In this document: positions 42,896 to 42,970 of the stretch, in pieces | How positions within the stretch are numbered: the first letter of the stretch is position 1 | Layout of the letters: the number at the start of each line of letters is the position of its first letter | NCBI RefSeq assembly: GCF_010731715.1 | Contig: NZ_AP022587.1 | Coordinates: forward strand, 744,001 to 808,000 | From: Mycobacterium stomatepiae | Lineage (GTDB): Bacteria; Actinomycetota; Actinomycetes; Mycobacteriales; Mycobacteriaceae | Direction: 5' to 3' | DNA length: 64,000 bases | Program-made: the position numbers and the translations under genes | Notes under the pieces: model-generated | The model's input: only the letters and a program-made list of their open reading frames with translations | Databases searched by the model: none | Told to the model about the DNA's origin: nothing

Positions 42896-42970
42896 GCCAA
42901 CTATTCACACCAGGCCAACCATTGTTCACTCCCGGCCAACCGGCGTTCATTTAAAGCGACTAAGTGTTCA
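42896..42970. repeat. four 21-bp-phased (A/G)TTCA direct repeats
   Basis: ATTCA at 42903 and GTTCA at 42924, 42945 and 42966 are each exactly 21 bp apart. The first three are preceded by GCCAAC (42896, 42914, 42935). The array lies about 115-190 bp upstream of the broken PE start, and matches the array upstream of PE18. Confidence 0.6.

What the first reader, a model, noticed from the sequence alone, without database searches (positions are those of the whole stretch)
42896..42970. Direct repeats at an exact 21-bp period in front of PE/PPE units of ESX-5
Seen: (A/G)TTCA begins at 42903, 42924, 42945 and 42966, all 21 bp apart, with GCCAAC preceding three of them. A second array upstream of PE18 has GTTCA/GTTCG at 41223, 41244 and 41265, also 21 bp apart. 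The PE19 leader has GTTCA at 39207 and ATTCA at 39228, again 21 bp apart. Inferred: a shared multi-site regulator acts on one DNA face (two helical turns per step). I do not recognise a known mycobacterial regulator with this site.
Basis: partly seen in the sequence, partly recalled or inferred. Interest (0 to 1): 0.75.

Follow-up and report, generated by a model that had tools for sequence, protein, structure and literature searches.

The report
Phosphate-switch operator arrays in ESX-5 locus
Three regularly spaced rows of short DNA repeats in a slow-growing mycobacterium look like landing strips for the phosphate-starvation regulator RegX3, set at fixed distances in front of ESX-5 secretion genes, an unusual layout of a largely known control system.

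Summary
The repeats are real, at the stated coordinates, and beyond chance: no chain of four in 1000 shuffles. They recur in ESX-5 loci of related slow growers.

The "unrecognised" regulator is most likely RegX3, of the phosphate-starvation system SenX3-RegX3. GTTCA(C/T) is the Pho-box half-site; the genome encodes a RegX3 ortholog and carries GTTCACC-n4-GTTCACC before pstS. A paper states that RegX3 directly binds and regulates M. tuberculosis esx-5 genes (PMC6016242 passage).

Weaker half-sites lie between the strong ones, so half-sites alternate 10 and 11 bp; conservation in the long arrays peaks at a 10.5-bp period.

Each array sits at a fixed distance from a -10-like TANNNT: 37-39 nt in 43 of 44 PPE25/PE18-type arrays, 48/49 nt (one turn further) in 33 of 33 PE19 arrays; background 2 of 3354.

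Best reading: three RegX3-activated promoters with tandem dimer sites on one DNA face. Binding and activation were not tested. RegX3 control of ESX-5 is known; I did not find the array layout or its phasing in the papers searched, and key primary papers were not held.

The parts
42896..42990 (+). Array A, upstream of the PPE25-type gene: four strong half-sites (42903, 42924, 42945, 42966), 21 bp apart, with weaker GGCCAAC-type half-sites between them
42859..42864 (-). -10-like TAATGT, 38 nt from array A on the gene side
   Evidence: 38 or 39 nt in 19 of 19 such arrays; letters checked
42520..42781 (-). Decayed PE gene between array A and the PPE25-type gene (start resembles MTFLAKRPEN..., end resembles ...SYAIAEIATAIAAN)
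   Evidence: my reading; one search shows no PE-length open frame here; no homology search was run on it
41295..42533 (-). PPE25-type gene (PPE + PPE-SVP domains); start codon not settled
41213..41272 (+). Array B, upstream of PE18: GTTCA 41223, GTTCA 41244, GTTCG 41265
41179..41184 (-). -10-like TAACGT, 38 nt from array B
40822..41121 (-). PE18 (PE domain)
39588..40811 (-). PPE gene between PE18 and PE19
39195..39257 (+). Array C, upstream of PE19: GTTCA 39207, ATTCA 39228, then in-phase GTAAC 39239 and 39250 (11 bp apart)
39152..39157 (-). -10-like TACTCT, 49 nt from array C
   Evidence: (48 or 49 nt in 33 of 33)
38815..39114 (-). PE19 (PE domain)
36957..38006 (-). espG5, used as the anchor for the comparison

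Best explanation
The three arrays are tandem RegX3 operators (Pho boxes). When phosphate is scarce, SenX3 phosphorylates RegX3 (from papers, passages). RegX3 dimers then bind head to tail: each dimer covers a weaker GGCCAAC/GGTCAAC-type half-site and a strong GTTCA(C/T) half-site 11 bp on, and the next dimer starts 10 bp later, giving a 21-bp repeat and a row of proteins on one face of the helix. The row ends 38 nt (PPE25 and PE18 units) or 48-49 nt (PE19, one turn further) from a -10-like element with no conserved -35 that I can see, so bound RegX3 would recruit RNA polymerase and switch on PE/PPE genes and perhaps the ESX-5 genes downstream. Shown here: the sites, spacing, conservation, -10 phasing, a RegX3 ortholog and a Pho box at pstS. 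Inferred: that RegX3 is the binder, that it activates, and that several dimers bind together.
For: Array real and non-random and conserved across ESX-5 loci. A profile built from 55 array sites finds in its own genome only this locus (4 hits, E 1.5e-6 to 0.005; next E 0.48; 150 of 1411 first-look candidates were scored). RegX3 ortholog encoded (E 6e-142 to PDB 2oqr, named regX3). GTTCACCGCACGTTCACC is one of two 0-mismatch matches genome-wide to the 11-bp box; it lies 84 nt before the next in-frame start of pstS and ahead of the PstS domain, the other match is inside an ORF. Two of nine relatives have a clean 11-bp pair before pstS. The published RegX3 consensus GT/GTCAcc-n4-cG and an EMSA-tested site GCCTAACCGCGATTC... 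(passages) align with the GGCCAAC-n4-GTTCAC unit. [quoted passage not shown] RegX3-dependent pe19 overexpression (PMC5513712, passage). Half-site scores in long arrays are high at 0, 10, 21, 31, 42, 52, 63, 74 and conservation has a 10.5-bp period. TANNNT at 37-39 nt in 43 of 44 and at 48/49 nt in 33 of 33 arrays, background 2 of 3354. PE19-site pattern in 37 of 56 genomes with EspG5 and 1 of 62 without.
Against: No binding or expression data for this species. The arrays read GTTCA on the strand opposite to the genes, whereas the pstS box reads along its gene; unexplained. The strict 21-bp step differs from the 22 bp expected of 11-nt Pho units. The intermediate half-sites are weak, and some out-of-phase offsets score as high: -24 (4.44), -8 (4.33) and 25 (4.22) in long arrays, -18 (4.4) in PE19 arrays. 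For PE19 arrays the strongest conservation period was about 22, not 10.5. The genome has 16 Trans_reg_C matches, among them MtrA and a GlnR-like regulator, which bind similar direct repeats; the GTAAC pair in array C looks more like theirs. 19 of 56 EspG5 genomes lack the exact PE19 pattern and 3 of 36 examined sequences lack it. 7 of the 10 pstS loci examined show no clean 11-bp pair; two of these seven have one GTTCACC with a decayed partner. One paper calls the RegX3 motif an inverted, not direct, repeat. The M. tuberculosis binding paper was not held, so its mapped site could not be compared.
Confidence: 0.8

Rival explanations
1. The arrays are operators of another OmpR-family regulator (MtrA, PhoP, PrrA, GlnR or an unstudied one) that also binds direct repeats about 11 bp apart.
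For: The genome has 16 Trans_reg_C matches, including MtrA and a GlnR-like one; MtrA's motif is a direct repeat with about 11-bp period (passages) and GTAAC-N6-GTAAC in array C resembles it.
Against: The strong half-site is GTTCA(C/T), the RegX3/PhoP-type Pho half-site, not GTnAC; a paper reports direct RegX3 control of esx-5 genes.
Confidence: 0.12
2. Composite operators: RegX3 on the GTTCA repeats plus MtrA or GlnR on the GTAAC repeats of array C, so PE19 integrates phosphate with another signal. This is a variant of the best explanation, not exclusive of it.
For: GTAACGACACAGTAACAG is about as conserved as the GTTCA part in PE19 promoters and lies in the same helical phase.
Against: Among the three arrays only C has it; the GTAAC units may simply be weak RegX3 half-sites (scores 4.67 and 4.97 of 7).
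Confidence: 0.25
3. The repeats are leftovers of tandem duplication or an RNA leader element without regulator binding.
For: Units are similar; a hairpin-like inverted repeat lies at 39207-39229.
Against: Conservation in long arrays is concentrated in half-site columns with a 10.5-bp period; no Rfam match at gathering score in 38600-43500; the arrays lie upstream of the conserved -10-like element, so would not be transcribed from it; three promoters share the layout.
Confidence: 0.03

Closest known systems
Mycobacterial RegX3 binding site (SenX3-RegX3 regulon), including RegX3 control of esx-5/pe19 in M. tuberculosis
   Same: Half-site GTTCA(C/T); 11-bp weak-strong pair; ESX-5 locus and PE19 as target (passages)
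   Different: Three to four strong sites in tandem at a strict 21-bp step, at PE18 and PPE25 units too; sites read against the gene direction; fixed -10 spacing
Streptomyces PhoP PHO box (11-nt direct repeat units, GTTCACC conserved)
   Same: Direct head-to-tail half-sites, two units needed per dimer (passage); complex operators exist (passages)
   Different: Spacing alternates 10 and 11 (21 per pair) rather than 11 and 11
MtrA box
   Same: OmpR-type direct repeat with about 11-bp period (passages); GTAAC pair in array C
   Different: Strong half-sites of the arrays are GTTCA, not GTnAC

Membership tests
RegX3/PhoP-type Pho box | Half-site GTTCACC-like | tested here: met
   TTCA invariant in both strong half-sites of 55 aligned sites; these were selected for RTTCA, so only the following C/T and the middle half-sites are independent evidence
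RegX3/PhoP-type Pho box | Two head-to-tail half-sites 11 bp apart | tested here: inconclusive
   Peaks at 10 then 21 from a strong site: weak-to-strong 11, strong-to-weak 10; some out-of-phase offsets score similarly
RegX3/PhoP-type Pho box | Same type of box at pstS in the same genome | tested here: met
   GTTCACCGCACGTTCACC, 84 nt before the next in-frame start of pstS; clean pair in only 2 of 9 relatives
RegX3/PhoP-type Pho box | Cognate regulator encoded | tested here: met
   RegX3 ortholog, E 6e-142 to 2oqr
RegX3/PhoP-type Pho box | Upstream of a promoter | tested here: inconclusive
   -10-like TANNNT at fixed distance, but no mapped transcription start
RegX3/PhoP-type Pho box | Bound by phosphorylated RegX3; response to phosphate | not testable with these tools
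   Literature passages for M. tuberculosis only
MtrA box | GTnAC direct repeats, 11-bp period | tested here: not met
   Strong half-sites are GTTCA; only the GTAAC pair at 39239 and 39250 fits

The most novel reading that the evidence does not exclude
Slow-growing mycobacteria carry a dedicated ESX-5 operator grammar: RegX3 dimers stack at 21 bp (10 + 11) into a cooperative row on one DNA face, held at 38 or 48-49 nt from the -10, so that array length sets a graded phosphate-dependent dose of each PE/PPE unit. The grammar is distinct from the single 11-bp box used at pstS.
Probability: 0.35. Interest if true: 0.6.

Novelty: new variant of a known kind. Interest (0 to 1): 0.45.

Why it matters
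ESX-5 exports PE/PPE proteins. If right, the finding ties its PE/PPE units at three promoters to one nutrient signal and gives a precise, testable promoter layout (sites, 10.5-bp phasing, -10 position) across many mycobacterial species. It also extends a known link (RegX3 and pe19) to PE18 and PPE25 units.

Tried and rejected
Considered and dropped: an unknown regulator (the half-site matches RegX3); an RNA element (no Rfam match at gathering score in 38600-43500); the arrays being common across the genome (the profile hits only this locus among the 150 of 1411 candidates scored; 15 of the 25 fetched 21-bp pairs elsewhere lie in long ORFs). Neighbours of six 21-bp pairs not covered by an ORF (L093, L096, L097, L101, L108, L109) showed no obvious phosphate genes: HxlR, zinc dehydrogenase, PEP mutase-type, DUF732, peptidase, thiolase, amidohydrolase, ion channel, NRPS-type, GntR. 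The pattern GKTCA-n6-GKTCA-n5-GKTCA with one mismatch gave one hit outside this locus. A gap pattern over many spacings gave 311 matches against 110 reversed, but the list was cut, so no spacing histogram was made. A sigma-70 scan of 39050-39320 found no promoter by E. coli rules. The 3-unit pattern over 297 genomes is present in 126, with 9 control matches in 8 genomes by my count of the rows; it includes a recurrent match that looks protein-coding (not checked for an ORF), so it was not used as a conservation rate. Rows dropped before counting: of 80 loci only the 35 with at least 3.3 kb upstream of espG5 were used (two of these, L018 and L066, are too short to reach array A); one 2-unit chain in L051, judged coding from its position, was removed (it stays in the background). 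L043 has one 22-bp interval and was counted among two-unit arrays. Papers: Elliott and Tischler 2016, Ramakrishnan 2015 and Sola-Landa 2008 are not held and are known here only through citing passages.

Full report
What the window is. The window is part of a 6.2-Mb single-contig genome. Among the nearest ESX-5 loci in named records are M. ahvazicum, M. triplex, M. genavense and M. montefiorense (EspG5 95-98% identical). The ESX-5 genes run on the minus strand: espG5, two WXG100 genes (esxN/esxM), PE19, PPE, PE18, the PPE25-type gene and a ferredoxin; then a plus-strand cytochrome P450; then an eccC5-type ATPase. Gene names follow the known M. tuberculosis order (recalled); the domains come.

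Shuffles do not produce such arrays (0 of 1000 with a chain of four; 9 of 1000 with three). On the same strand of 35 related loci the [AG]TTCA distance histogram is 109 at 21 bp, 39 at 42 bp, and 17 or fewer at all other distances from 5 to 60, against a maximum of 6 on the other strand. The loci are related, so these numbers measure conservation, not independent events. PE19-type sites were found in 33 of 36 sequences (window plus 35 loci) and arrays of three or more units in 19 of 36; two of the 36 (L018, L066) are too short to reach the latter.

The real step in the long arrays is about 10.5 bp. Aligning 55 non-redundant sites shows a second, weaker half-site (GGCCAAC, GGTCAAC, GGACAAC or similar) between strong ones. 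Scoring against the RegX3 consensus G(T/G)TCACC gives high values at 0, 10, 21, 31, 42, 52, 63 and 74 in the long arrays (4.3-6.0 of 7, mean over all offsets 2.3). Out-of-phase offsets -24, -8 and 25 also reach 4.2-4.4, so the scoring alone is not clean. Column conservation in the long arrays has its strongest period at 10.5 bp; the selected RTTCA columns contribute to this. In PE19 arrays the high offsets are -18, -10, 0, 21, 31 and 42, offset 10 is weak, and the strongest computed period is about 22. The 10.5-bp statement therefore rests on the long arrays.

Which regulator. Published text gives the RegX3 site as GT/GTCAcc-n4-cG and shows by mutation and EMSA a site GCCTAACCGCGATTC... in M. 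smegmatis (PMC7884335, passages). Streptomyces PHO boxes are 11-nt direct repeats with GTTCACC conserved, two needed for binding (PMC6988585, passage; PMC4415409, passages). Another paper describes the RegX3 motif as an inverted GTGAAC repeat (PMC7525159, passages), so the literature is not uniform. The genome encodes a RegX3 ortholog, and also MtrA and a GlnR-like regulator. A pstS gene, after the GlnR-like and mshD genes, is preceded by GTTCACCGCACGTTCACC: the longest open frame covers the box, but the next in-frame start lies 84 nt beyond it and the PstS domain begins at residue 93. Of the 9 relatives whose pstS locus was fetched, 2 have a clean 11-bp pair, 2 have one GTTCACC with a decayed partner and 5 show none in the stretch scanned. 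PMC6016242 states that RegX3 directly binds and regulates esx-5 genes (passage); PMC5513712 reports RegX3-dependent pe19 overexpression in a pstA1 mutant (passage).

Specificity. A profile from the arrays finds in its own genome only this locus (4 hits to E 0.005, next E 0.48; 150 of 1411 candidates scored). It is built from sites of this kind, four or five of them from the window itself, and it does not find pstS, whose spacing differs. Across 118 sampled genomes of the genus the PE19 pattern occurs in 38, and EspG5 (E up to 1e-100) in 56. Of the 56 EspG5 genomes 37 have the pattern, of the 62 others 1. In 28 of the 37 the site lies within 2.31 kb of espG5 on the same contig; in the other 9 it is on a different contig (recounted). 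19 of 56 EspG5 genomes lack the exact pattern.

Promoter geometry. In the gene direction every PE19 array (33 of 33) is followed after 48 or 49 nt by TANNNT (25 of 33 TACTCT). Long arrays have it at 38 or 39 nt (19 of 19), and two-unit arrays elsewhere in the locus at 37 or 38 nt (24 of 25; the exception is in L043). The rate at other offsets in the same flanks is 2 of 3354. 38 and 48.5 differ by one helical turn. By eye the alignments show no conserved -35, and a largely conserved AGGAGG-like ribosome site before the PE19 start. This is the strongest new evidence that the arrays act as phased activator operators. The three promoters are probably paralogous and the species related, so part of the agreement is shared descent.

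A decayed gene with a kept operator. Between array A and the PPE25-type gene the window holds only traces of a PE gene (my reading). Among the 19 arrays of three or more units, the longest frame printed after the array was not PE-like by my reading; L020 may have an intact PE in another frame. No homology search was run on these stretches. The four-unit array is kept in the window, which suggests it still serves the PPE25-type gene.

Interpretation. I conclude, at about 0.8, that these are tandem RegX3 operators for phosphate-starvation induction of ESX-5 PE/PPE units. RegX3 control of ESX-5 and PE19 is known. Full-text searches showed me no listing that describes 21-bp arrays at PE18 or PPE25 or their -10 phasing. 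I opened passages of only some of the listed papers, and the key primary papers are not in the library, so I cannot say it is unpublished.

Noticed in passing
window 39239-39254: GTAAC-N6-GTAAC pair next to the PE19 array, about as conserved as the array itself; resembles MtrA or GlnR boxes (GlnR motif recalled).
   Followed up: partly
window 42520-42781: Relic of a PE gene between array A and the PPE25-type gene, while the array is intact.
   Followed up: partly
L043 (M. tilburgii), about 1850-1900: One 22-bp interval in array A; this is also the one array of 44 without TANNNT at 37-39 nt.
   Followed up: no
related loci, upstream of espG5: A secondary peak of 17 [AG]TTCA pairs at 24 bp in 35 loci, unexplained; possibly coding.
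   Followed up: no
   Followed up: no
window 39207-39229: The PE19 site is also an inverted repeat (GTTCACCGAACGGTACGGTGAAT), flagged as terminator-like on the + strand.
   Followed up: no
G000:C1:2953575, 2961370, 2964559, 2972270: Four identical copies of GTTCACCCGTGGCAGTCCAACGTTCA; the one checked lies beside a fragment with condensation/AMP-binding (NRPS-type) domains.
   Followed up: partly
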